Shown: positions 1-9,619 of the stretch, piece by piece
Position numbering within the stretch: the first letter of the stretch is position 1
Layout of the letters: each line of letters opens with the position of its first letter
Assembly (NCBI GenBank): GCA_017469265.1
Contig: JAFUGS010000054.1
Span: 1 to 50,373, forward strand
Direction: 5' to 3'
Source: Clostridia bacterium
GTDB taxonomy: Bacteria > Bacillota > Clostridia > Christensenellales > Aristaeellaceae
DNA length: 50,373 bases
Program-made: the position numbers and the translations under genes
The notes under the pieces: model-generated
Told to the model about the DNA's origin: nothing
Databases searched by the model: none
The model's input: the letters and a program-made list of their open reading frames with translations, nothing else

Positions 1-132
1 GTAGATCCAAACTACTATGAACCAGGAACAAAGATCACGGAGGAACAGAAAGAAGCATTGAACATCGAGTTCGTAGGGCCGAATCAAAAGTGGAACTACA
101 TCATTCGACCAAATGATCTTTCAGTTTCGTGA
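1..132 (+). CDS. C-terminal end of a protein, possibly a transposase
   Basis: Frame 1 is open from the first base to a TGA at 130-132 and gives a 43-residue tail; the start lies outside the window. The tail is hydrophilic and ends with KWNYIIRP and a few more residues. A WNY-I-RP ending is reminiscent of ISAzo13-type DDE transposases, which would fit the gene debris that follows. That resemblance is from memory and the fragment is short, so the identity is tentative. No terminator is obvious behind it; the next firm signal is the operator and promoter of the MATE gene at 237-282. Confidence 0.4.
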   Translation, partial: VDPNYYEPGTKITEEQKEALNIEFVGPNQKWNYIIRPNDLSVS

Positions 133-236
133 CAGTTCCTTGGGGTAAAAAACCGGTTTTCTACATGATCTGGATTCATGTTCAGACGAAGTCGGCAAAT
201 TTCCTACCTAAATTCCGTGGAAGTTGTGTTGTAAAT

Positions 237-282
237 AGTTACATACTTAACCTTTGTAATTCCACTTACCGGTTGCTACAAT
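237..282 (+). promoter_or_regulatory. Promoter of the MATE gene with LacI-type operator copy 1
   Basis: The -35 box is TTGTAA at 254-259, the spacer is 17 bases and the -10 box is TACAAT at 277-282. Immediately upstream, AGTTA (237-241), six bases and TAACC (248-252) form an imperfect inverted repeat ending one base before the -35 box. The same layout occurs at 5452 and 6588, so this is probably a site for the LacI-family regulator encoded at 5531. Confidence 0.7.
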
Positions 283-309
283 GGAAACAAATCAATTGGG
301 AGGTGTGTT

Positions 310-1656
310 ATGAAAACAAAGGATCATTTTTTCAAAGCAGTATGCACCCTGGCAATTCCTGTGGCATTGCAATCCATGCTGCAATCTTCTTTTAGCATGG
401 TAGATCAAATCATGATCGGGCAATTGGGTGAAATCAATGTGGCCGGTGTGGGCTTGGCAGGAAAATTTGCATCGATTTATTCTGTAGTGATTTCCGCCAT
501 TGGCGCTGTTGCCGGAATTATGATTGCTCAGTATCTGGGGCAGAAAAACCGACGCGAAGTCCGCCGGAGTTTCTTTACAAACTTGCTGCTGGGAGCAGGC
601 ATTGCCGGAATGTTTATGGTAATATGCACCCTGTTTCCGAATCAGATCATGGGAGCTTATACCAGGGATGTGCAGACCCGTCAGGCGGCAGCAGAATATT
701 TGATGTTGATTTCCGGAACTTTTGTTCCTATGGCTGGAGCAACCCTTCTTTCCACATTGTTCCGTTGTTTGGAAAAGCCCCGGCTTCCCCTATATGCCAG
801 CATTCTGTCAGCGTTGTTGAATACCGGCTTGAATTACATTATGATTTTCGGCAAGCTGGGAATCTCACCCATGGGTGTGCATGGTGCGGCATTTGCTACA
901 GTAATTTCCCAATGTGCCAATTTTCTGCTGATGCTCCTAATGCTTTCCAAAAACGGTTTCCTTTTGAAATCCAACGAAAGAGAACCCACTGCAACACTCC
1001 GAATGAATTGGGGGCAGTATTGGTCTATGCTGCTGCCTTTGCTGGTATGCGAGGTGGTGTGGAGTCTGGGGGAAAATGTCTATGCCGCCATCTACGGGCA
1101 CATGAGTACCGATGCCAGTGCTGCTATGACTTTGACAAATCCCATCCAGGGATTGGTGATCGGTGCGTTGTGCGGATTGTCTCAAGCGGCAAGTGTGATC
1201 ATCGGAAAACACCTGGGCAGTGGTGAAAACGAGGAGGCCTATTGGTCAGCGAAAAAGCTGATGCTCTACGGTGCTATTGGCTCAGCACTTCTATCTGTCA
1301 TTGTAATGATTGCCAGCAAAGCTTATGTGGGAATCTATCAGGTAGATAATGCTGTAAAGACTATGACAATGCAGATTCTCTTTGCCTATGCCATTGTAGT
1401 TCCGTTTAAGGTTCTCAATATGATTTTGGGCGGCGGAATTATCCGAAGTGGTGGACGAACAAAATATGTCATGTTCATTGATATGGTCGGTACATGGTGT
1501 TTTGGTGTTCCTTTGGGGCTTTTAAGTGCATTCGTCTGGAAGTTGTCCATTCCTTATGTATATTTTCTACTGTCACTTGAGGAGTGTATTCGCTTTGGCA
1601 TTTCGTTGATCGTATTTCGCAGACGAAAATGGATGAACCAGTTGGAAGCGTCATGA
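310..1656 (+). CDS. MATE family multidrug exporter
   Basis: This 448-residue polytopic membrane protein has the size and hydrophobic pattern of MATE (MatE) exporters, which use an ion gradient to extrude cationic drugs and other small molecules. N-terminal features include the ALQSMLQSSFSMVDQIMIGQLG segment followed by GVGLAGKF, typical of MATE helices 1 and 2, and a second related half begins near residue 230. A GGGAGG site lies just before the ATG. It stands alone behind a promoter carrying operator copy 1, the operator type also found before the LacI gene (5531) and the SnoaL-AAC operon (6663), so it is probably co-regulated with them. The substrate cannot be told from sequence. Confidence in the family is high. 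Confidence 0.93.
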   Translation: MKTKDHFFKAVCTLAIPVALQSMLQSSFSMVDQIMIGQLGEINVAGVGLAGKFASIYSVVISAIGAVAGIMIAQYLGQKNRREVRRSFFTNLLLGAGIAGMFMVICTLFPNQIMGAYTRDVQTRQAAAEYLMLISGTFVPMAGATLLSTLFRCLEKPRLPLYASILSALLNTGLNYIMIFGKLGISPMGVHGAAFATVISQCANFLLMLLMLSKNGFLLKSNEREPTATLRMNWGQYWSMLLPLLVCEVVWSLGENVYAAIYGHMSTDASAAMTLTNPIQGLVIGALCGLSQAASVIIGKHLGSGENEEAYWSAKKLMLYGAIGSALLSVIVMIASKAYVGIYQVDNAVKTMTMQILFAYAIVVPFKVLNMILGGGIIRSGGRTKYVMFIDMVGTWCFGVPLGLLSAFVWKLSIPYVYFLLSLEECIRFGISLIVFRRRKWMNQLEAS

Positions 1657-1671
1657 AGTAATGGAGGATTA

Positions 1672-1743
1672 TCATATGGAAAAAGCTTCCTGGCTCAGCA
1701 AACTTTTACAGCGAATATGTTTGATTGCTTCAGCAAAGCTCAT
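1672..1743 (-). pseudogene. Truncated XRE-family regulator, N-terminus only
   Basis: The minus strand encodes 23 residues beginning MSFAEAIKHIRCKSLLSQEAF, the first two helices of an XRE helix-turn-helix domain, and then stops at TGA. A full domain needs about 55 residues, so the gene is cut off. Its expression signals are intact: GGAGGT five bases before the ATG and a consensus promoter at 1774-1802. The cut lies directly next to the 3' end of the MATE gene, so insertion or deletion at that junction is the likely cause. The overlapping 34-residue plus-strand frame (1676-1780) is treated as a shadow. Confidence 0.65.
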
Positions 1744-1773
1744 TATGTACCTCCATAGCAAGATTATAGCGTT

Positions 1774-1802
1774 ATTATAGCACTTTGAAAAAGCCAGTGC
1801 AA
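1774..1802 (-). promoter_or_regulatory. Promoter of the truncated XRE gene
   Basis: Read on the minus strand: TTGCAC at 1802-1797, a 17-base spacer, and TATAAT at 1779-1774. It lies about 30 bases before the start codon of the truncated regulator. Confidence 0.7.
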
Positions 1803-1837
1803 TATAATGGCAAATATTTACTGCACTGGTAACCTGC

Positions 1838-1881
1838 AGAAAATAAAAGCGGCTGCCATCCGAACAAAGACAGCAACCGCT
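1838..1881 (-). terminator. Terminator of the flavodoxin gene
   Basis: On the minus strand AGCGGTTGCTGTC and GATGGCAGCCGCT pair, with an eight-base loop, and are followed by TTTATTTTC. It sits just after the flavodoxin stop codon. Confidence 0.7.
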
Positions 1882-1891
1882 ATATTCATAT

Positions 1892-2365
1892 TCAGAACTG
1901 ATTCGCCCAATCAGCAAGCTCCTGACGGGTGGCGTTCATGCTGAACACCTTGCCAGTTTTGACCATGGCGCCGGGGCAGCTGGGTTCCAGCTTCTCGTTT
2001 GTTTTGCCCATACCGCTGCCGCCGGACGTAGCAAACGGAATGATCGTCTTGCCGGCTAGATCATAGCTTTCAAGGAATGTGTTGATGATCGTGGGTGCCA
2101 CATACCACCAGATGGGAAAGCCAACGTAGATCGTATCGTAGTCAGCTACGTTGTCACGGAGAGACTCGATCTCAGGACGGGATGCCGGATTGTTCATCTC
2201 AATTGTGCTGCGCGAGGTCTTGTCGCGCCAATCCAGATCAGCCTTTGTATATCTGACCTTTGGAACGATCTCAAACAGATCTGCACCAAGGGCATCAGAT
2301 AGGTTCTCTGCGACCTTCGCCGTCACGCCGCTTGCAGAGAAATATGCTACCAGCTTTCTGCTCAT
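1892..2365 (-). CDS. Flavodoxin
   Basis: A 157-residue flavodoxin of the long-loop, Flavodoxin_4-like type, an FMN-binding soluble electron carrier or quinone/iron reductase. The N-terminus KLVAYFSASGVTAKVAENL is the phosphate-binding loop for FMN, followed by a YVGFPIWWYVAPTIINTFLE block and FATSGGSGMGKT, both usual in this group. The start at 2365 (MSRK) is chosen because GAGGTG stands six bases upstream; a GTG three codons earlier would overlap that site. An aldo/keto reductase remnant lies just upstream in the same direction; flavodoxin and aldo/keto reductase genes are often neighbours in Clostridia, so this may be the survivor of a redox operon. Confidence 0.9.
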   Translation of the reverse strand: MSRKLVAYFSASGVTAKVAENLSDALGADLFEIVPKVRYTKADLDWRDKTSRSTIEMNNPASRPEIESLRDNVADYDTIYVGFPIWWYVAPTIINTFLESYDLAGKTIIPFATSGGSGMGKTNEKLEPSCPGAMVKTGKVFSMNATRQELADWANQF

Positions 2366-2391
2366 TTTCTTCACCTCAAAACAAATAACTA

Positions 2392-2610
2392 TTAGTCCAG
2401 CACGCCGATTTCTACCAGTTTGTCAAAATCCGCATCCTCATCCACGCAGTGCAGGAAGCCAAAGTCCACATAATCCGTGCCCAGCGTTTCCAGTTCCCAC
2501 AGGAAGGTTTTCTTGATCGTCTCAAAATCGCGGCACCAGCCGTACTCACCGTTTTCGTCATATATCGCACCGAAATGGCACTGCAAAAAGACCTGCTCGG
2601 GTAGCTTCCA
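2392..2610 (-). pseudogene. Aldo/keto reductase fragment
   Basis: The minus strand from about 2610 to the TAA at 2392 encodes a piece including QCHFGAIYDENGEYG, TLGTDYVDFGFLHCVDEDAD and the end VEIGVLD. This matches the interior of aldo/keto reductases around the conserved TDYVD-LLHC strand. Both the N-terminal TIM-barrel part with the catalytic Asp/Tyr and the C-terminal half are missing, so it cannot be active. The open frame continues upstream to 2712, but that part runs through a terminator hairpin and shows no homology. It lies between the flavodoxin gene and the bidirectional terminator at 2672-2719. Confidence 0.6.
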
Positions 2611-2671
2611 ATAAGACAGTATGAAAACTACTGACATAGGGTAGCTGCCAAACAGGGTGCAACAACAAAAG

Positions 2672-2719
2672 AATGCGTGATACTTCAGTCCCATGGGCTG
2701 GGTATCACGCATTTTTTAT
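2672..2719. terminator. Bidirectional terminator
   Basis: AATGCGTGATAC (2672-2683) and GTATCACGCATT (2702-2713) are perfectly complementary. Plus-strand T-rich sequence follows the right arm, and the minus strand reads TCTTTTG after its own arm. It ends the GNAT operon on the minus strand. Confidence 0.75.
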
Positions 2720-2720
2720 T

Positions 2721-3227
2721 TTAGATCGCGAAGAAGTATTTGCAGATTCTGTGCTCCTCACCCTGATAGGGGCCGATGCCTTCAAATTCCTTGATAAAGC
2801 CGCAGCGCTCCATAACCTTGACGGAAGCCTTATTATCCGCAAGGCAAATACCGGCGATTTTGGAGAGTCCCAGCTTGGGCATGATGACAGGTAGGAATGC
2901 CTTGACCGCCTCAGTTGCATAGCCCTTCTTGGTGTAGTTTGCGCCGATGTGGTAGCCCACCTCCCAGGTGCCGTCGTCGAAGGGAACGGCTTGGACATAG
3001 CCGATGTAGGTGCCATCCTTCAGTAGCACCGGGTACACCAGCGGGCCGTCGCCATTTTCATAGACACCCATCAGGAATCCCACGGTATCTGCCGCTTCTT
3101 CCACGGTTTCAAACACTTCATCGGGGACGAATCGGCGGTTGTCCTCGTCCAGAGAATTCAGATGGACAGCTTCCGCCATATCCATGGTGAACTCGGTAAT
3201 AATCAATCTTTCGGTTTCGATTTTCAT
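2721..3227 (-). CDS. GNAT family N-acetyltransferase
   Basis: A 168-residue acetyltransferase of the RimJ/RimL-like group (Acetyltransf_3). It starts with the usual TERLIITEFT strand, has the WEVGYHI and KKGYATEAVKAFLPVIMPKLGL block that forms the acetyl-CoA loop (Q/R-x-x-G-x-A variant), and ends with NKASVKVMERCGFIKEFEG, the conserved last helix and strand. The acceptor may be a protein N-terminus or a small amine and cannot be assigned. It starts two bases after the stop of the upstream XRE gene, so it is the last gene of the DUF2975-XRE-GNAT operon. Confidence 0.88.
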   Translation of the reverse strand: MKIETERLIITEFTMDMAEAVHLNSLDEDNRRFVPDEVFETVEEAADTVGFLMGVYENGDGPLVYPVLLKDGTYIGYVQAVPFDDGTWEVGYHIGANYTKKGYATEAVKAFLPVIMPKLGLSKIAGICLADNKASVKVMERCGFIKEFEGIGPYQGEEHRICKYFFAI

Positions 3228-3229
3228 GA

Positions 3230-3442
3230 TTAGCTATCCTTTTGATATTCCAGAATGTCTCCCGCTTCGCAGTCCAACGCCTCGCAGATCGCCGCGAGCG
3301 TGGTGAACCGGACTGCGGTAACTTTGTTGTTTTTGATCTTGGACAGGTTTACATTGGAAATGCCTACCCGCTCAGCAAGCTCGTTAAGGGACATTTTCCG
3401 CTCCACCATCATCCGATCCAGTCGAAGAACGATTTTTCCCAT
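3230..3442 (-). CDS. YozG-like XRE-family transcriptional regulator
   Basis: A 70-residue protein that is essentially one Cro/C1-type helix-turn-helix domain of the small YozG type: LDRMMVERKMSLNELAERVGISNVNLSKIKNNK followed by RFTTLAAICEALDCEAGDIL. AAGGAGG stands before the ATG and overlaps the stop of the frameshifted DUF2975 gene, so translation is probably coupled. DUF2975 membrane proteins and YozG-type regulators are regularly encoded as pairs, the regulator probably acting on its own promoter. The divergent region at 4045-4137, with its repeated TTAAT/ATTAA words, is a likely target. Confidence 0.9.
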   Translation of the reverse strand: MGKIVLRLDRMMVERKMSLNELAERVGISNVNLSKIKNNKVTAVRFTTLAAICEALDCEAGDILEYQKDS

Positions 3443-3452
3443 GGCGGCCTCC

Positions 3453-4011
3453 TTACAGAAGTCCGTCTACATCTTTTTCAAGCTCTATGCCTTGAGCAAA
3501 GAATTGAGTGATGCAAAGAACCACAATACCGATGACAAAGCCCTCAAAGCCGTTGTATATCTCAGCGTTCTCAACACCGATCAATCACGCTCATAACAAA
3601 GCCAACAACGGGGACAGCGATGGAAAAGATGCCGATCTCACGGAACATACGCACATTGTCATGCTGGAAAGGAGTCGTTCCTTCGGATTTTTTGATGATC
3701 AGGTGGAGATTTCTAAAAATCATAGCCATCAGCCCAAGGATCAGCGTTGCGCCGATGCCGAACAGGAAAAGCGCCGTCATATCAACCTGACCGTTTGTAA
3801 CAGCCGCCTGAATTTCAAAGCCGTACACAGACAGTTTGGCCCCGCAGCTCTCACAAGCATCAAAGCCGATGAAATAGCCGATCCAATCGGGATTGACCAA
3901 TGCACAGACCGTTGCCGCCAGCATCAGGCCCGCTCCGACCCACTGGAACACCTCCACGATTTTTGTGATGATCTTTGCCATATTCGCAATGAATTTGCTG
4001 AAGTTTTTCAT
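3453..4011 (-). pseudogene. DUF2975 membrane protein gene with a frameshift
   Basis: A DUF2975 integral membrane protein of unknown function that accompanies YozG-type regulators. The first frame (from 4011) encodes MKNFSKFIANMAKIITKIVEV, two hydrophobic segments and an RNLHLIIKKSEGTTPFQ loop, then ends early at 3571 after VMSVIDRC. The missing end is present in another frame, reading GVENAEIYNGFEGFVIGIVV and ending FFAQGIELEKDVDGLL at TAA 3453, with normal coding character. One base change near 3575-3585 would restore about 185 residues. The start at 4011 is chosen for GGAGGT seven bases upstream. It may be a real mutation or an assembly error. Confidence 0.75.
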
Positions 4012-4044
4012 TTCACATACCTCCAAAGGTTTTCTGATGATGAA

Positions 4045-4073
4045 AGCATAACACTAATTTTAATGTTTGTCAA
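4045..4073 (-). promoter_or_regulatory. Promoter of the DUF2975-XRE-GNAT operon
   Basis: On the minus strand: TTGACA at 4073-4068, 17 bases, TATGCT at 4050-4045. The spacer contains ACATTAAAATTAG, similar to sequence in the divergent promoter. Confidence 0.75.
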
Positions 4074-4108
4074 TCCCTTTTTAATGAGCGGCATTAAATA
4101 CGATGCGT

Positions 4109-4137
4109 TTGACATTAAAAATATTACGCGTTATAAT
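4109..4137 (+). promoter_or_regulatory. Promoter of the nitroreductase gene
   Basis: A consensus promoter: TTGACA at 4109-4114, a 17-base spacer, TATAAT at 4132-4137. It is divergent from the DUF2975 operon promoter 35 bases away, so one bound repressor could act on both. Confidence 0.85.
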
Positions 4138-4164
4138 AATGGAAACGAAAATGGAGGGTTAGCC

Positions 4165-4923
4165 ATGAATGAAATGGAGTATCAAATGATCTTCAAACGA
4201 AAGTCCTTTCATTTATTCAAGGACATCGGGCATCTATCGGATATGGAACTGACTCAGATTGAAGAAGCCTTTCATTCCTGCCGACCGTTGATTCCAGAGA
4301 TTAAAGTAGGAATGAAGATTGTTTCGGCGGATCAGACCACCTGCAAGCGGGGGCAGGAATACTGCATCCTGCTCTACAGCGAAAAGAAGGAGGGGTATCT
4401 CTCCAATATCGGATACATTGGCGAACAGTTGGATCTGTATCTCGCCTCCCTGAACATCGGCGCTTTGTGGTTCGGGATTGGCAAAACAGAGGAACGATCA
4501 TATAACGGTCTGGATTTCGTTATCATGATCGCTATTGCGAAAATGCCCCAGGACAAGTTCCGAAAAGATATGTTCAAAAGCAAGCGCAAACCTCCGAATG
4601 AGGTATGGCATGGCGTGCATTACACCAATATCGGTAATATTGCCCGGTTCGCTCCCAGCGCCTGCAATACGCAGCCATGGATCGTGGAAGCAAAACAGAC
4701 AGGTCTGTCTGTTTACAGATACAAGAAGCCCGGAAAGCGGGGTATCATGCCTGTCGCCATGGTGACGCATTACAACCGCATCGATATCGGCATCTTCCTG
4801 CTGTTCCTGGAATTGTGCCTGGAGCATGAGGGAATCGGCTTTGAACGGACGCTGTTGCCCGATACCGGCGATGAAGAAAAGACCTTGATTGCAGTGTATC
4901 AACTCCATGATCCTAGATGTTAA
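4165..4923 (+). CDS. Nitroreductase family protein (TM1586-like)
   Basis: A 252-residue FMN-dependent nitroreductase-fold protein of the TM1586 type, in which two half-domains form an intramolecular dimer. The N-terminal half starts MIFKRKSFHLF, the RRSxR-like FMN phosphate site, and the second half has IARFAPSACNTQPW, the typical SPSxxNxQPW motif. Electron donor and substrate are unknown; relatives reduce flavins, nitroaromatics or quinones. GGAGGG stands six bases before the ATG at 4165; the open frame reaches back to 3508, but that part is antisense to the DUF2975 gene. It has its own strong promoter and is divergent from a redox-unrelated regulator operon. Confidence 0.87.
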   Translation: MNEMEYQMIFKRKSFHLFKDIGHLSDMELTQIEEAFHSCRPLIPEIKVGMKIVSADQTTCKRGQEYCILLYSEKKEGYLSNIGYIGEQLDLYLASLNIGALWFGIGKTEERSYNGLDFVIMIAIAKMPQDKFRKDMFKSKRKPPNEVWHGVHYTNIGNIARFAPSACNTQPWIVEAKQTGLSVYRYKKPGKRGIMPVAMVTHYNRIDIGIFLLFLELCLEHEGIGFERTLLPDTGDEEKTLIAVYQLHDPRC

Positions 4924-4924
4924 T

Positions 4925-4967
4925 TTCCGTTGCGGAATTGCAAAGTGAAATCGGTAGACTTTATGAT
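4925..4967 (+). promoter_or_regulatory. Promoter of the XRE gene with inverted repeat
   Basis: TTCCG-TTG-CGGAA (4925-4937) is a perfect 5-base inverted repeat touching the -35 box TTGCAA (4938-4943). The spacer is 18 bases and the -10 box is TATGAT (4962-4967). It begins directly after the nitroreductase stop codon and may be an operator for the XRE protein encoded downstream. Confidence 0.5.
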
Positions 4968-5013
4968 CGCTCCCCGCTAAAATGATGTCATTCCAAGCCA
5001 AGGAGGAAGCACA

Positions 5014-5364
5014 ATGGAATTTGGAAACAGACTGTATGAACTGAGAAAGCAAAAGGGACTTTCTCAGGAGGAACTGGCGAATCGGTTGGATGTGACCCGA
5101 CAGACCGTTTCAAAATGGGAGTTGGGCGATTCTACCCCGGATATGGATAAGCTGGTTGCTCTGGGGGAGCTGTTTGAAATCTCTCTGGATGAGCTGGTAT
5201 TGGGAAAAGTGCCTGTCACAACAAAACTGGATGAATGGGGGGCAAAGGTTATGACTACCGAAAACAAGCAGAAAGCAAAGAAGGGACTGAAGATCGTGGG
5301 CATCATCGCCGGGGCGGTTCTGGCAATCGACGCAGTTTCCATGATCGCCTATTTTCTGATCTGA
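5014..5364 (+). CDS. XRE-family regulator with C-terminal membrane segment
   Basis: A 116-residue protein with an N-terminal Cro/C1 helix-turn-helix (residues about 5-60: LYELRKQKGLSQEELANRL then TRQTVSKWELGDSTPDMDKL). A charged linker follows, and a hydrophobic segment near residues 93-115 (LKIVGIIAGAVLAIDAVSMI) is probably one membrane helix. This architecture is common in Clostridia; the target genes are unknown. AAGGAGG lies before the ATG. It is a single-gene unit with a palindromic element at the promoter and a terminator behind it. Confidence 0.9.
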   Translation: MEFGNRLYELRKQKGLSQEELANRLDVTRQTVSKWELGDSTPDMDKLVALGELFEISLDELVLGKVPVTTKLDEWGAKVMTTENKQKAKKGLKIVGIIAGAVLAIDAVSMIAYFLI

Positions 5365-5384
5365 GGCTTTCCCAAATAGAGCGT

Positions 5385-5414
5385 GAGCCGGGAGAAATCC
5401 CGGCTCATTTCTTT
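5385..5414 (+). terminator. Terminator after the XRE gene
   Basis: GAGCCGGGA (5385-5393), loop GAAA, TCCCGGCTC (5398-5406), then ATTTCTTT. An almost identical hairpin terminates the AAC(3) gene at 7866-7886. Confidence 0.8.
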
Positions 5415-5451
5415 GGCAGCTGAGTAATGCAACGCACGTATTCTTGTTGTG

Positions 5452-5497
5452 GGTTATGCGATTAACCTTTGACCTTCCTGCCGGATGGATATATACT
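5452..5497 (+). promoter_or_regulatory. Promoter of the LacI-type gene with operator copy 2
   Basis: The operator GGTTA-TGCGAT-TAACC spans 5452-5467. One base later come the -35 box TTGACC (5469-5474), a 17-base spacer and the -10 box TATACT (5492-5497). This is the best conserved of the three operator copies and suggests autoregulation. Confidence 0.8.
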
Positions 5498-5530
5498 AAT
5501 CTCAGATTCAGCTGACAGGAGGCATCTCAA

Positions 5531-6532
5531 ATGGAGGACCAGAGGGTTAGAATCAGTGATATTGCGCAGGAGCTGGGGCTTAGTACGGCCACGGTTTCCA
5601 ATGTGATTCACGGAAAAACAAAGAAGATTTCTGAGGAAACCCAGAAGAGGGTCATGGCGCTGTTGGAAGAAAAGCAATACATTCCCAGCATGGCTGGTAT
5701 TTTGCTGGCCCGGAACTCTTCCAGAATTATCGGCGTGTTCGTAAATGACCATGAAAAATACGAAGGGCACACGCTGGATGATTTCTTTATCTCCTCTTCG
5801 TTGAATTATCTGTCCACCGAAATCGAAGCCAACGGGCAATTTATGATGGTGAAGAAAGCAAAAAGTGCAGAACAAATCATTCAGTTTGCATCCATGTGGA
5901 ATCTGGACGGAATCGTGGTGATCGGCTTCTGCGATCAGGATTATGTGTATCTTCGAAATCATATGCGGATTCCTTTTGTGGTCTATGACGGTTATTGTAA
6001 AAACCCGGAAAGGATCGTGAATATCACCATCGATAACTATGACGGCGGCCATCAGGCAGGCTGTTATCTCCGGGAGAATGGTCACGAACGGGCTTTATGT
6101 ATTGCCGACAATGACATCTGTGTGGATATGGAGCGGGTACAGGGCTTCCAGACAGGTTTTGCTCCCGGCTTTGCGGATTATCTACCGGTTCCCATGCATC
6201 GGCAGCAGCGTTGGCAATTCTACAGAGAACATCTGAACAGGATTCTGAATACAACTGCGGTTTTTGCAGTTTCAGATTACTATGCGGTTGACTTCATCGG
6301 CTTTCTGAATGAGCAGGGAATCCGGGTTCCGGAGGAAATTGCTGTTGTAGGTTTTGATGACACACCTCTCTGCCAGATGGTATCTCCATCTCTTACCACA
6401 GTCAGGCAGGATGGCGCACTTCGGGCAAGGATTGCCATAGAGAAACTCCGGGAATTAAAGGAAGGCAGACAGACCGAAACACAAATCCGGCTTCCGGTGC
6501 AGCTTGTGGTCAGGAGAAGCAGCAGGACATAA
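5531..6532 (+). CDS. LacI-family transcriptional regulator
   Basis: A 333-residue regulator with an N-terminal LacI helix-turn-helix (residues about 6-55: VRISDIAQELGLSTATVSNV then HGKTKKISEETQKRVMALLEE) and a periplasmic-binding-protein-like sensor domain ending with the conserved AVVGFDDTPLCQMVSPSLTT. The hinge reads IPSMAGILLARNSSRIIG. GAGG stands before the ATG. The ligand cannot be predicted; the neighbours concern export (MATE) and small-molecule modification (SnoaL-like, AAC(3)-like), not sugar use. The same operator occurs before this gene, before MATE at 310 and before the SnoaL-AAC operon, so all three units are probably its regulon. Confidence 0.92.
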   Translation: MEDQRVRISDIAQELGLSTATVSNVIHGKTKKISEETQKRVMALLEEKQYIPSMAGILLARNSSRIIGVFVNDHEKYEGHTLDDFFISSSLNYLSTEIEANGQFMMVKKAKSAEQIIQFASMWNLDGIVVIGFCDQDYVYLRNHMRIPFVVYDGYCKNPERIVNITIDNYDGGHQAGCYLRENGHERALCIADNDICVDMERVQGFQTGFAPGFADYLPVPMHRQQRWQFYREHLNRILNTTAVFAVSDYYAVDFIGFLNEQGIRVPEEIAVVGFDDTPLCQMVSPSLTTVRQDGALRARIAIEKLRELKEGRQTETQIRLPVQLVVRRSSRT

Positions 6533-6587
6533 CTTATATGCGGCATTTGTGCAGAGAACATAAATGCCGCAATTTCTTTTTGTGCAG

Positions 6588-6633
6588 GGTTACGGTGTTA
6601 ACCTTTGCAATTTGCTTTTATCTGCGATAAAAT
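6588..6633 (+). promoter_or_regulatory. Promoter of the SnoaL-AAC operon with operator copy 3
   Basis: The operator GGTTA-CGGTGT-TAACC spans 6588-6603. One base later come TTGCAA (6605-6610), a 17-base spacer and TAAAAT (6628-6633). Spacing is identical to copies 1 and 2. Confidence 0.75.
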
Positions 6634-6662
6634 GAAAACATAAAAATCAGGAGGTTATTCCC

Positions 6663-7034
6663 ATGACACCAACAGAACTGGTCATCCGCTTTTTTGAAGA
6701 AGGCTATACGAACCGAAATTATGGTTTTGTGATGGACTGTATGACAGAGGATTATATTGACAACAGTCCTGCTGCCGCAAGGAGCAATGCGGATGCGGTG
6801 GGCATTCTGAAAATCGTTGCCGGGCAGTATGCTTATCTGAATGCAACTGTAATTGATGCTTTCGCAGAAGGGGGAATGGTTGCCACCAGAGTGCGTTTTG
6901 ATGGACTTCACAATGAATCCGGCAAACGGGTCAGCTTCGAAGCGCTGGAAAATTTCAAGGTTATGAACGGTAAGATCGTAGAATCCTGGGGCTACTGGCC
7001 GGACAAGGAAATCGAAGAGAAGCTGAAAGCGTAA
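6663..7034 (+). CDS. SnoaL-like (NTF2-fold) protein
   Basis: A 123-residue protein with the SnoaL-like polyketide-cyclase fold signature: an N-terminal helix ELVIRFFEEGYTNRNYGFVMD, then TEDYIDNSP, a central MVATRVRFDGLH strand and a terminal GKIVESWGYWPD strand. Family members bind or convert small hydrophobic molecules in a cone-shaped pocket; no specific reaction can be assigned. GGAGG precedes the ATG. It starts a two-gene operon with the AAC(3)-family gene 24 bases downstream, under the LacI-type operator shared with the MATE exporter. Confidence 0.85.
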   Translation: MTPTELVIRFFEEGYTNRNYGFVMDCMTEDYIDNSPAAARSNADAVGILKIVAGQYAYLNATVIDAFAEGGMVATRVRFDGLHNESGKRVSFEALENFKVMNGKIVESWGYWPDKEIEEKLKA

Positions 7035-7058
7035 ATGTAGTTTGTCGAGGTTTTGTAA

Positions 7059-7847
7059 ATGGAGAGAAAAATCGTATTAAAGCAGGACATTTTGACTGCG
7101 CTAAAGAAGATTGGTATTACCGCAGGTCAGACGATTATGGTTCATACCTCGCTGAGCAGTATGGGATTTGTTTGCGGTGGCGCACAGATTGTCATTGAAG
7201 CCTTGCTGGAAAGTGTAGGCGCAGACGGAACCATTTTGATGCCAACCCAATCATGGAAGAATCTTGATCCCACCGCTGGCGTTCACTGGGAAGAACCGGA
7301 GGAATGGTGGCAGATCATCCGGGACAATTGGCCTGCGTACAACAAGGATATCACACCCACAAATACCATGGGGGCTGTTGCAGAAATGTTCCGCAGGTGG
7401 CCCGGTACGCTGCGTAGCGATCATCCCGCCCGTTCAGTGGCTGCGAACGGAAAATATGCTGCGTATCTTACACAAGATCATGACCTTTCTAATATCTTTG
7501 GGGAGGGTTCACCCATCGGGAAACTGTATGAACTGGATGGGTATGTACTGCTGATCGGCGTTGGTTACGATAAGAACACTTCATTGCATTTGGCAGATGT
7601 GAGAGCAGACTACCCCGGAAAGCACAACAGCACGGAATACAGTGCCGTTATGGAAAACGGTCAGCGGGTCTGGAAATCCTATGATACTCTTTTTGTGGAC
7701 GGTGAGGATTTTGAGGAAATCGGAGAGGCCTTTGAGAACCGTCATTCCGTTCAAAAGGTCACATTGGGCAATGCAACCATAACGCTTATGAAGCAGAGAG
7801 AGCTTGTGGACTTTGCTGTGCAATGGATTGAACAGAACAGGAAGTAA
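7059..7847 (+). CDS. AAC(3)-family aminoglycoside N-acetyltransferase
   Basis: A 262-residue member of the Antibiotic_NAT family, enzymes that acetylate the 3-amino group of aminoglycosides with acetyl-CoA. Conserved blocks are IMVHTSLSSMGF near residue 26, LMPTQSW, the SDHPARSVAANG segment, and GEGSPIGKLYELDGYVLLIG leading to NTSLHLAD, which carries the catalytic His. Chromosomal relatives in Clostridia often have no proven resistance role, so the substrate is open. It is the second gene of the operon with the SnoaL-like gene and shares a predicted regulator with a MATE exporter, which fits a detoxification theme. A GAGG site lies about 8 bases before the ATG. Confidence 0.92.
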   Translation: MERKIVLKQDILTALKKIGITAGQTIMVHTSLSSMGFVCGGAQIVIEALLESVGADGTILMPTQSWKNLDPTAGVHWEEPEEWWQIIRDNWPAYNKDITPTNTMGAVAEMFRRWPGTLRSDHPARSVAANGKYAAYLTQDHDLSNIFGEGSPIGKLYELDGYVLLIGVGYDKNTSLHLADVRADYPGKHNSTEYSAVMENGQRVWKSYDTLFVDGEDFEEIGEAFENRHSVQKVTLGNATITLMKQRELVDFAVQWIEQNRK

Positions 7848-7865
7848 TTCTAGCAGACAAGCATG

Positions 7866-7890
7866 GGCCGGGAGCAATCCCGGCTCTTTC
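7866..7890 (+). terminator. Terminator after the AAC(3) gene
   Basis: GGCCGGGA (7866-7873), loop GCAA, TCCCGGCT (7878-7885), then CTTTC. It is nearly the same hairpin as at 5385. Confidence 0.75.
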
Positions 7891-7962
7891 ATATCTTTCA
7901 TTGACAAGTAACTGTATGACGGTCTGCAACTGTGAATTCCGAAAGACCAACTATGAAAAGTC

Positions 7963-7984
7963 AACCCCTTCGAAGGGGTTTTAC
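7963..7984 (+). terminator. Hairpin with T-run
   Basis: AACCCCTT (7963-7970), CG, AAGGGGTT (7973-7980), then TTACC. It is a compact stem that could act as a weak terminator or mark an element boundary. Confidence 0.45.
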
Positions 7985-7995
7985 CACCAATATTT

Positions 7996-8051
7996 CTATT
8001 GTGGACGATAACAAGGCTATTGTGGACGATTGCAGTAAACGTCCACAATAG
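7996..8051. repeat. Two direct and one inverted copy of a 12-14-base motif
   Basis: CTATTGTGGACGAT occurs at 7996-8009 and again at 8017-8030, 21 bases apart (two helical turns). CGTCCACAATAG at 8040-8051 is the inverted 12-base core. This lies in the gene-free stretch 7848-8278, which otherwise holds only hairpins. The phased arrangement looks like a protein-binding array such as iterons or recombinase sites. Confidence 0.7.
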
Positions 8052-8101
8052 GGAGGGATTTTAGGAAAAAAGTTTGATTTTTGCAGAAAAAGGTCCCCCG
8101 A

Positions 8102-8143
8102 AAAAGAGAAAAAAGGCCGGACAGGGACAATCCCTATCCAGCC
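8102..8143 (-). terminator. Minus-strand terminator
   Basis: On the minus strand GGCTGGATAGGGA and TCCCTGTCCGGCC pair (some G-U), with a TTG loop, followed by TTTTTTCTCTTTTTC. It lies downstream of tRNA-Ser as a possible second terminator. Confidence 0.6.
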
Positions 8144-8229
8144 AAATGACGCCGTACACTCGATTTCTTGCGCCACGAGGGGCGCTTTTGTCGTTATAAC
8201 CCTATATTTTGACGCTTTATCAGTCTATA

Positions 8230-8275
8230 AGTGCAAAAATAATCACCCATGCTTTGTATCAAAACATGGGTGATT
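8230..8275 (-). terminator. Terminator of tRNA-Ser
   Basis: On the minus strand AATCACCCATG and CATGGGTGATT pair over 11 bases and are followed by ATTTTTGC. It begins a few bases after the encoded CCA of the tRNA. Confidence 0.8.
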
Positions 8276-8278
8276 TGC

Positions 8279-8367
8279 TGGCGGAGCGGGTGGGATTCGA
8301 ACCCACGTGGCGTTGCCGCCAAACTGATTTCGAGTCAGCCCCGTTATGACCGCTTCGATACCGCTCC
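8279..8367 (-). tRNA. tRNA-Ser(CGA)
   Basis: A complete 89-base class II tRNA including an encoded CCA (8281-8279). The acceptor stem pairs GGAGCGG with CCGCTCC. The anticodon arm is CTGA-CTCGAAA-TCAG with anticodon CGA, decoding serine UCG. A long variable arm (GGCG-GCAA-CGCC) is as expected for serine tRNAs, and the T arm is GTGGG-TTCGAAT-CCCAC. It sits inside the AT-rich accessory stretch; tRNA-Ser genes are frequent integration targets, but no duplicated 3' end was seen nearby. Confidence 0.95.
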
Positions 8368-8476
8368 ATGGCACGAGCCGCATTATATCACAAGGGGTTT
8401 TGGTTTTCAATAAGTTTGTACCTTTTTGAAGAAAAATCTTTCGTACGCTGAAGTGAAAAGTGTGCTTCCAATATGA

Positions 8477-8674
8477 AAAACAGAAAAGAAGGACAGCGTT
8501 AATTCGATTGGCGATCGGGCATTTGATGAAACATCTATTGAACGAGTGCATTGCAGCGAAAGCAGTTATGCGTGGAAGTGGTTTATGCAGAATGGTTTTG
8601 CTGAAAAACTGAAAAGGAAGGCTACAGAGGAAGAAGTCAGAAACGCTCCAACATTTGCCATTACGGATCTGTGA
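8477..8674 (+). pseudogene. Tail of a BspA-type leucine-rich repeat protein
   Basis: The plus-strand frame from 8477 to the TGA at 8672 has no start codon but encodes a coherent 65-residue tail with IGDRAFDETSIERVHC, SSYAWKWFMQNGF and a charged end. IG-AF-xTSI is the LRR_5 (BspA-like) repeat, and S-YA-W-N is the usual last repeat of such surface proteins in Clostridia. A TGA stands directly upstream in the frame, so this is a remnant of a much larger gene, left between tRNA-Ser and the ADP-ribosylglycohydrolase gene. Identification rests on the repeat pattern only. Confidence 0.5.
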
Positions 8675-8716
8675 AATTATTTCTGTAAATCCCGGATCAT
8701 CCACGATAAAACCAAG

Positions 8717-9619
8717 TTAATGGTAGTCAGACAGCAGCGTGCTATCCGTCTTCTTAGCTGCAACATTACCAGATTGCACGCGAGAAGAAGTTCTCCTCCA
8801 CAACCGTGAATCGGTTTCAGCCTTTTTCCTGCAAATAGTTTTGAAGCGATCCAGCACCGTTTTAATCTTTTCTGTCAGGCGGTTTTCTCCCTCAGCCGCA
8901 ATCTCCTCCGGTACGCCATAGAAAGCCTCTGCAATGCTTCCGGCGATGCAGGTCAGTGTGTCGCAATCGCCACCCAGGGAGACCGCTGTCCGGATCACAT
9001 CCTCAAAATCCGTCCCTTCCAGGAATGCAGTCATCGCCTCTGGTACAGTTTCCTGGCAGGATTCTACGTGATGGTAAGTCGGCCGGATCTCATCGCAGGT
9101 GCGGGTCAGGTTGTAGCCAAATTCAGAAGTCACATACTCTCTGATCTCCGCTTTACTGTGACCCGTCCTCGCCAGAAAGATAGCGCTGGCTGTCGCTTCC
9201 GCTCCTTTGATTCCTTCGGGATGATTATGCGTTACCTCCGCAGTCAGCCGGGCTACATGCCGCGTTTCCTCCATCGTATCGTACAGCCAGCCTGCGGAAG
9301 AAACCCGCATGGCGCTGCCGTTGCCATAGCTGTTATATGGAGTCGGATTCTTTGTGTTCAGCCAATTCCAGAACATTGTTCCATAACCTGCGTAAGGGTA
9401 TTCATGCCCCCAGTACTGCATGGAATTGAATAAAGCATACCTGATCGCGTCATCGGACCAGCCTATTGTGTTCATCAAAGCTTCCGCCACAGCGATGGTC
9501 ATCACCGTGTCATCCGTAAAACGGGATCGTTGACTGAACAACGGAAAATTCTTTGTCTTATCCCCCATGTCAAACTCATACGGTGCACCAATCATGTCCC
9601 CCAGAATTGCTCCGATCAT
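8717..9619 (-). CDS. ADP-ribosylglycohydrolase family protein
   Basis: A 300-residue enzyme of the ADP-ribosylglycohydrolase (DraG/ARH) family, which removes ADP-ribose from proteins or nucleic acids using two Mg ions. Metal ligands are visible in GDMIGAPYEF near the N-terminus, SRFTDDTVMT, and GGDCDTLTCIAGSIAEA near residue 240. The start at 9619 is chosen because AAGGAG lies nine bases upstream; a longer frame to 9676 overlaps the upstream gene. The last 35 residues (after FKTICRK) are basic, not part of the family fold, and may come from a changed 3' end. It follows a hypothetical gene 26 bases upstream and shares its promoter at 10123-10151. Confidence 0.9.
   Translation of the reverse strand: MIGAILGDMIGAPYEFDMGDKTKNFPLFSQRSRFTDDTVMTIAVAEALMNTIGWSDDAIRYALFNSMQYWGHEYPYAGYGTMFWNWLNTKNPTPYNSYGNGSAMRVSSAGWLYDTMEETRHVARLTAEVTHNHPEGIKGAEATASAIFLARTGHSKAEIREYVTSEFGYNLTRTCDEIRPTYHHVESCQETVPEAMTAFLEGTDFEDVIRTAVSLGGDCDTLTCIAGSIAEAFYGVPEEIAAEGENRLTEKIKTVLDRFKTICRKKAETDSRLWRRTSSRVQSGNVAAKKTDSTLLSDYH

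What the first reader, a model, noticed from the sequence alone, without database searches (positions are those of the whole stretch)
237..6633. Three promoters share one LacI-type operator with identical geometry
(A/G)GTTA-N6-TAACC occurs at 237-252, 5452-5467 and 6588-6603, each time ending exactly one base before a -35 box and followed by a 17-base spacer and a -10 box. The three units are a MATE exporter, the LacI-family gene itself and a SnoaL-AAC(3) operon. The LacI protein therefore probably controls an export-plus-modification set, unusual for this mostly sugar-sensing family. It may sense an antibiotic-like or toxic compound.
Basis: partly seen in the sequence, partly recalled or inferred. 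Interest (0 to 1): 0.75.

Follow-up and report, generated by a model that had tools for sequence, protein, structure and literature searches.

The report
Sugar-type regulator controls a drug-type exporter
A gut bacterium and its relatives appear to use a regulator from the sugar-sensing LacI family, bound at one fixed spot beside the promoter, to control a MATE exporter (and, in this genome, also a possible antibiotic-modifying enzyme), which suggests an uncharacterised toxin-like or sugar-like signal.

Summary
In the 2.57-Mb genome GTTA-N6-TAAC occurs at five places, three of them here; the form continuing into CTTTG occurs exactly only at these three. Of 29 orthologous lacI loci found, 25 have a MATE gene nearby and all 25 carry the operator, 23 directly before MATE. 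In 27 non-duplicate promoters its centre lies 32-34 bp before the -10 box, about -44.5 to -46.5. In one clade the operator is CTTA-N6-TAAG and recognition-helix residue 24 is Tyr, not Asn (4/4 against 16/16; one evolutionary event). So this LacI protein very probably reads the site.

The conserved unit is regulator plus MATE exporter. The SnoaL-AAC(3) operon has the operator only here: 0 of 16 other AAC(3) relatives. The sign of control is unresolved: I lean slightly to activation (Cra-like), but CcpA represses from a similar position. The ligand is unknown; the sugar-type Arg/Asp pair of the pocket is invariant. It is a new regulon type inside a known family.

The parts
237..252 (+). operator 1 (AGTTACATACTTAACC), centre about -44.5, before MATE
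   Evidence: the same 14-mer stands before MATE in L061
254..282 (+). promoter 1: -35 TTGTAA 254-259, -10 TACAAT 277-282
310..1656 (+). MATE family exporter, 448 aa
   Evidence: Pfam MatE E 9e-46; TIGR00797 197.7 bits, cut-off 147.4
5452..5467 (+). operator 2 (GGTTATGCGATTAACC, CG centre), before lacI
5469..5497 (+). promoter 2: -35 TTGACC 5469-5474, -10 TATACT 5492-5497
5531..6532 (+). LacI-family regulator, 333 aa; N24 in the recognition helix; R202 and D276 in the pocket
   Evidence: Pfam LacI 3e-12, Peripla_BP_3 1.1e-25
6539..6571 (+). hairpin followed by a T run, likely terminator of lacI
   Evidence: fold -19.5 kcal/mol, z -4.5
6588..6603 (+). operator 3 (GGTTACGGTGTTAACC), before SnoaL-AAC(3)
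6605..6633 (+). promoter 3: -35 TTGCAA 6605-6610, -10 TAAAAT 6628-6633
6663..7034 (+). SnoaL-like protein, 123 aa
   Evidence: Pfam SnoaL 4.2e-12
7059..7847 (+). AAC(3)-like acetyltransferase (Antibiotic_NAT), 262 aa
   Evidence: Pfam PF02522 6.5e-87; NCBIfam AAC_3 211 bits, below its 270-bit cut-off

Best explanation
The 333-aa LacI-family protein is a dedicated local regulator of a MATE exporter. Its dimer binds GTTAYGCGNTTAAC-like sites (here three) immediately upstream of the -35 box, centred at about -44.5 to -46.5, and a small molecule held in its sugar-type pocket switches it. In this genome the same protein also controls its own gene and a SnoaL-AAC(3) operon that was attached later. 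I lean to its acting as a class-II-like activator (as recalled for Cra), so that the bound protein turns the exporter on. Shown by sequence: the sites, their rarity, conservation, fixed register, and the match between half-site and residue 24. Inferred: binding itself, the ligand switch, the activating sign (about 0.5) and the toxic or sugar-like ligand. Confidence that this LacI protein controls these promoters through these sites: about 0.9; the figure below is for the whole statement, sign included.
For: Rarity. Conservation: MATE near lacI at 25 of 29 ortholog loci, in the other four the contig ends near lacI or lacI is broken; operator directly before MATE in 23 of these 25 and before the lacI-MATE pair in 2. 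27 promoters in one register: -35 offset 2 (17) or 3 (10), centre to -10 32 (12), 33 (14) or 34 (1) bp; a promoter scan that ignored the palindrome picks the same promoter in 30 of 31 rows. Genome-wide the operator-promoter composite gives 8 hits in 7 of 8 ortholog genomes, all at lacI-MATE, with 4 control hits; the CTTA form occurs once in each of 3 genomes, at MATE, control 0. N24 with GTTA 16/16, Y24 with CTTA 4/4; LacI and MATE distances correlate, Mantel r 0.82, p 1e-4, 20 pairs. For activation: the fixed register; two distant paralogs (L057, L059) have an operator directly behind the -10 of their own gene (a repressing place) but at the -45 place before their GH66 genes (by eye); conserved T and A tracts further upstream.
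Against: No binding or expression data. The covariation is one event (the Y24 clade is monophyletic). The LacI family mostly represses; CcpA in L. lactis represses from -9 relative to the -35 sequence and activates from -21 and -31 (PMC2329647, section 13), and these sites lie 9.5 or 10.5 bases before the first base of the -35. The -35 and -10 boxes look good enough to work unaided in many rows. Related promoters share ancestry, so a fixed register is partly inherited, and sites 1 and 3 of the window may be copies. In 6 of 27 rows the upstream T tract follows a terminator-like hairpin. The strict composite in 300 family genomes had 14 hits against 28 in the reversed control, so single hits mean nothing. 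L069 shows no MATE in the 8 kb upstream of lacI that are held.
Confidence: 0.48

Rival explanations
1. Same protein, same sites, opposite sign: a ligand-released repressor that blocks RNA polymerase by covering the DNA just upstream of the -35 box, with negative autoregulation where lacI has the operator.
For: LacI-family default; CcpA represses from -9 relative to the -35 (PMC2329647); -35 and -10 boxes are recognisable throughout; 72% of surveyed LacI-family regulators are autoregulated (PMC4052901, passage).
Against: All 27 promoters use the same place although a repressor could sit anywhere over the promoter; two paralogs use a place behind the -10 for their own gene and the -45 place for targets.
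Confidence: 0.43
2. The sites belong to another regulator of the neighbourhood (for example the XRE-type protein at 5014-5364) or are a promoter feature without a dedicated regulator.
For: An XRE gene lies directly upstream of lacI in the window.
Against: Among the ortholog loci scanned only L073 has a close XRE relative (97%), and L071 and L072 have distant ones (44%, 48%). The half-site changes with a LacI recognition residue, and distant LacI paralogs with the same helix have the same operator.
Confidence: 0.05
3. On the ligand, compatible with either sign: the exporter moves a sugar or metabolite made by the cell (overflow relief), and the regulator senses that sugar; no toxin is involved.
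For: Invariant R202/D276, aligned with an Arg and an Asp of PurR (residue numbers and the ligand role of the pair are recalled); paralogs that share the operator stand before GH66, GH13 and ABC sugar-transport genes.
Against: MATE proteins are mostly known for drugs and cations (recalled); the attachment of an AAC(3)-like gene here points to a modified foreign compound.
Confidence: 0.3

Closest known systems
LacI/GalR-family local regulators (survey of 190 groups, Ravcheev et al. 2014, PMC4052901)
   Same: Pfam LacI HTH plus Peripla_BP_3; even palindrome with CG centre in the group consensus; adjacent target; operator before its own gene in some members
   Different: 176 of 182 groups with an assigned pathway there control carbohydrate metabolism, and 'efflux', 'multidrug' and 'antibiotic' do not occur in its main text. 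Here the target is a MATE exporter.
Cra/FruR of enteric bacteria
   Same: LacI family; represses some genes and activates others (PMC4052901 passage); an activating place near -45 is recalled and was not found in the searches
   Different: Global carbon regulator; different targets
CcpA (L. lactis)
   Same: LacI family; position-dependent sign: activates from -31/-21, represses from -9 relative to -35 (PMC2329647)
   Different: Global regulator; its data favour repression at the place seen here
NtdR of Bacillus subtilis
   Same: LacI-family regulator (PMC4052901) listed as positive regulator of kanosamine synthesis, an amino-sugar antibiotic (PMC6522883 table; PMC5481536)
   Different: Controls biosynthesis, not export; no sequence comparison was made here
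LacI paralogs beside glucan-use genes (L057-L060, 34-37% identity)
   Same: Recognition helix STATVSNVIHG, operator GTTAYGCGCRTAAC, same place before the -35
   Different: Sugar-use neighbours (Pfam-scanned for L057, L059, L060; L058 not scanned); own gene has a second operator behind its -10 in L057 and L059

Membership tests
LacI/GalR transcription factors | N-terminal LacI HTH and C-terminal periplasmic-binding-like domain | tested here: met
   PF00356 46.6 bits (cut-off 27), PF13377 91.1 bits (cut-off 26.5)
LacI/GalR transcription factors | even palindromic operator with central CG | tested here: met
   Group consensus GTTAYGCGTTTAAC: centre C 20/27, G 18/27; in the window only 1 of 3 sites has CG
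LacI/GalR transcription factors | operator specificity set by recognition-helix residues | tested here: met
   Residue 24 goes with the half-site, 16/16 and 4/4, one event; correlation only, no binding test
LacI/GalR transcription factors | ligand-switched DNA binding | not testable with these tools
   R202 and D276 invariant in 20 of 20; no ligand known
Sugar-utilisation LacI regulons | targets are sugar uptake and catabolism genes | tested here: not met
   Operator stands before MATE in orthologs; before MATE, lacI and SnoaL-AAC(3) in the window
Cra-like position-dependent activators | activation from a site just upstream of -35 | tested here: inconclusive
   Position fits the recalled place, sign not measurable; CcpA data point the other way
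Aminoglycoside 3-N-acetyltransferase AAC(3) | curated equivalog score | tested here: not met
   NF033082 211 bits against cut-off 270; Pfam Antibiotic_NAT met
MATE exporters | MatE domains, TIGR00797 subfamily | tested here: met
   197.7 bits, cut-off 147.4

The most novel reading that the evidence does not exclude
A LacI-family activator has been turned from sensing glucans into sensing an amino-sugar or glycoside antibiotic, using the old sugar pocket and the old -45 activating place, so that a sugar sensor now drives antibiotic export and, in this genome, antibiotic acetylation.
Probability: 0.13. Interest if true: 0.8.

Novelty: new variant of a known kind. Interest (0 to 1): 0.5.

Why it matters
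LacI-family regulators are taken as sugar sensors. A conserved lacI-MATE unit with its own operator, found in scattered Clostridia, is a regulon whose only conserved target seen here is an exporter. If the ligand is a toxin or antibiotic it would be a new kind of drug sensor in gut bacteria; if it is a sugar, it would point to regulated sugar export by MATE proteins. The fixed place of 27 operators and the paralogs' two-place usage also make a clean test case for when a LacI-family protein activates.

Tried and rejected
Rejected: chance. Rejected: SnoaL-AAC(3) as a conserved member of the regulon (flanks of about 1.5 kb or less, exact GTTA-N6-TAAC only). Rejected: terminator U-tracts as the whole cause of the upstream T tract, since only 6 of 27 rows have a clear hairpin; what the T tract and the ACAAA element are stays open. 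Rejected: spread by known plasmids; at E <= 1e-40 only two distant matches (34.5% and 31.0%) in 72,556 plasmid records. Led nowhere: the strict composite pattern in 300 family genomes gave 14 hits in 11 genomes, 8 of them at lacI-MATE loci (the window's 3 included) and 6 elsewhere, against 28 control hits (my hand count of the table). Window 1-9000 has no Rfam match above gathering score other than a tRNA. Literature: no paper in the held library has both 'LacI family transcriptional regulator' and 'MATE family efflux transporter'; broader searches listed nothing that I recognised as this regulon, judged from listings; the Cra -45 place was not found.

Rows dropped: L052 (near copy of L051), L062 and L063 (near copies of L061) were left out of the 27 promoters and the 20 pairs; L055, L056, L069, L071, L073 and L075 (split, cut or broken lacI or MATE) were left out of the 20 pairs, while the promoters of L056, L069 and L071 were kept in the 27.

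I had also written 8 of 8 genomes for (it is 7 of 8) and given all paralogs a GH66 operon.
Full report
WHAT IS THERE. The three (A/G)GTTA-N6-TAACC palindromes are at the stated coordinates, each followed by one base, a TTGNNN hexamer, 17 bases and a -10 hexamer. They stand before a MATE gene (310-1656), a LacI-family gene (5531-6532) and a SnoaL plus AAC(3)-like pair (6663-7847). A fourth window match (5990-6005, one mismatch) lies inside lacI.

IS IT CHANCE? No. In the own genome (2,567,418 bases, 103 contigs, 91.75% complete) GTTA-N6-TAAC occurs at 5 places, 3 of them here; the reversed control occurs at 15. The two other places (L031, L032) lack the CTTTG that follows all three sites here. 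RGTTA-N5-TTAACCTTTG with up to 3 mismatches has 26 matches: the three exact ones, none with 1, one with 2, 22 with 3 (control 41). So, as far as the held genome goes, the regulon is three transcription units.

ORTHOLOGS. A search of 300 genomes of the family found 10 with a lacI relative of 53% identity or more, own genome included, then a gap down to 38%. The public genome collection gave 15 more loci, and order and class searches at E <= 1e-90 gave 3 more genomes (G648 among 396; G686 and G963 among 391). Identities run from 51% to 89%, apart from the short fragment L075. Several named sources are gut MAGs (deer, water buffalo, goat), labelled Oscillospiraceae, Lachnospiraceae, Roseburia, Blautia, Dorea or only Clostridia. 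The gene is rare and scattered.

THE CONSERVED UNIT IS lacI PLUS MATE. Of 29 ortholog loci (window, L047-L056, L061-L075, L098-L100), 25 have a MATE gene near lacI (3.9 kb away in the window, 1.2 kb in L049, closer in the others); in L055, L069, L073 and L075 the contig ends near or inside lacI, or lacI is broken. The operator (GTTA or CTTA form, exact, within 250 bases) stands directly before MATE in 23 of 25 and before a lacI-MATE pair in the other two (L072, L100). Directly before lacI it stands in 8 of the 26 loci that can be judged (window, L047, L061-L063, L069, L072, L100); four loci have the order MATE-lacI with the operator before MATE (L051, L052, L056, L099); in the remaining 14 lacI has none. 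LacI and MATE distances correlate (20 pairs, Mantel r 0.82, p 1e-4), as expected if they travel together. By contrast AAC(3) has relatives in 16 other family genomes at E <= 1e-40, none with GTTA-N6-TAAC in the flanks held and none with a SnoaL neighbour there.

SAME PLACE EVERYWHERE. I aligned 27 non-duplicate promoters on the palindrome, 23 with GTTA and 4 with CTTA. The consensus is GTTAYGCGTTTAAC with a CG centre (C 20/27, G 18/27). The -35 box begins 2 (17 rows) or 3 (10 rows) bases behind it, and the operator centre lies 32 (12), 33 (14) or 34 (1) bases before the -10 box, that is near -44.5, -45.5 or -46.5 if transcription starts 12 bases after the -10 box begins. A scan for the best promoter that ignored the palindrome chose this promoter in 30 of 31 rows (27 plus four paralog rows; the exception is L074). 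The spacer between the boxes and columns -24 to -15 before the operator carry almost no information, whereas a T tract (about -60) and an ACAAA element (about -78) do. Six of 27 rows have a hairpin before the T tract with z below -2 (window SnoaL, L047 MATE, L061 MATE, L069, L072, L074). Elsewhere these elements may be contacts for the polymerase alpha subunit or a second site; this is inference.

ONE OR TWO PER GENOME. GTTANNCGNNTAAC in 13 genomes with a relative gives 16 places, 13 of them at the lacI-relative locus (reversed control 29 places). The operator-promoter composite gives 8 hits in 7 of 8 ortholog genomes, all at lacI-MATE (control 4); G686 was missed because the base before its TTG is not the one I asked for.

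THE LacI PROTEIN READS IT. Four orthologs (L053, L054, L070, L098) have CTTA-N6-TAAG at the same place; in the three of these genomes that I searched it occurs exactly once, at MATE. Residue 24 of the recognition helix (equivalent to LacI Arg22, recalled) is Tyr in these 4 and Asn in the 16 with GTTA. The four form one clade in both trees, so this is one event, not four. Distant paralogs L057-L060 (34-37% identity) keep Asn and the GTTA operator.

WHERE IT CAME FROM. Beside the paralogs lie a GH66 gene (L057, L059), ABC sugar-transport genes (L057, L060) and a GH13 gene (L057); L058 was not scanned. The operator before these genes has the same place. In L057 and L059 a second operator lies two bases behind a -10 box of the paralog's own gene (read by eye), a place where binding can hardly do other than repress. 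In the window the SnoaL operator lies 56 bases behind the lacI stop, with the flank TTTTGTGCAGGGTTAC that L061 has before MATE, while the window's MATE, with the same 14-base operator as L061's MATE, lies 3.9 kb upstream of lacI. The simplest reading is that SnoaL-AAC(3) took over the old MATE promoter place.

REPRESS OR ACTIVATE? I cannot decide. For activation: one fixed place in 27 promoters and three kinds of target, the two-place usage of two paralogs, and the recalled activating place of Cra near -45. For repression: the habit of the family, intact promoter boxes, and CcpA of L. lactis, which represses from -9 and activates from -21 and -31 relative to the -35 sequence (PMC2329647, section 13 and passages). 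Guharajan et al. (PMC8667592, passages only) report that effects from upstream of a promoter depend on the factor.

LIGAND. R202 and D276 are invariant (20 of 20; 22 of 22) and align with an Arg and an Asp of PurR that in the family hold ligands (recalled). A hydroxyl-rich ligand is therefore likely: a sugar, a glycoside, or an amino-sugar antibiotic. The AAC(3)-like enzyme would suit the last, but it scores below the curated AAC(3) cut-off, so its substrate is open. B. subtilis NtdR is a precedent for a LacI-family positive regulator tied to an amino-sugar antibiotic (PMC6522883 and PMC5481536, passages).

NOVELTY. In the survey of Ravcheev et al. (PMC4052901; sections 9 and 10 and passages) 176 of 182 groups control carbohydrate metabolism; the others named in section 10 concern nucleosides, purines or neotrehalosadiamine, and 'efflux' does not occur in the main text. 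Its supplements were not read. No held paper has both family names. I rate it a new variant of a known kind.

Noticed in passing
L075:1-671 and window 5613-5753, 7993-8305: In a roe deer gut MAG lacI is identical for 141 bases and then stops, and similarity resumes at the region behind AAC(3); the rest of lacI, SnoaL and AAC(3) are absent from the stretch held. Real loss or assembly junction.
   Followed up: partly
L073:1195-5120 and window 2716-5407, 5966-6168: In a goat gut MAG the block from XRE to GNAT lies inverted relative to a lacI fragment, another sign that this region rearranges or assembles badly.
   Followed up: partly
promoters, about -60 and -78: Conserved T tract and ACAAA element upstream of the operator, mostly without a terminator hairpin; function unknown.
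   Followed up: partly
L057:7913-7926 and L059:12021-12034: LacI paralogs beside GH66 genes have an operator directly behind their own -10 box and another upstream of the -35 of the target: a possible two-sign regulator.
   Followed up: partly
window 7996-8051: Two copies of CTATTGTGGACGAT and a complementary CGTCCACAATAG lie behind AAC(3); the block is shared with L075.
   Followed up: no
L071:8001-10249: lacI and MATE are each split by a frame change in this record (strain 1xD8-48).
   Followed up: no
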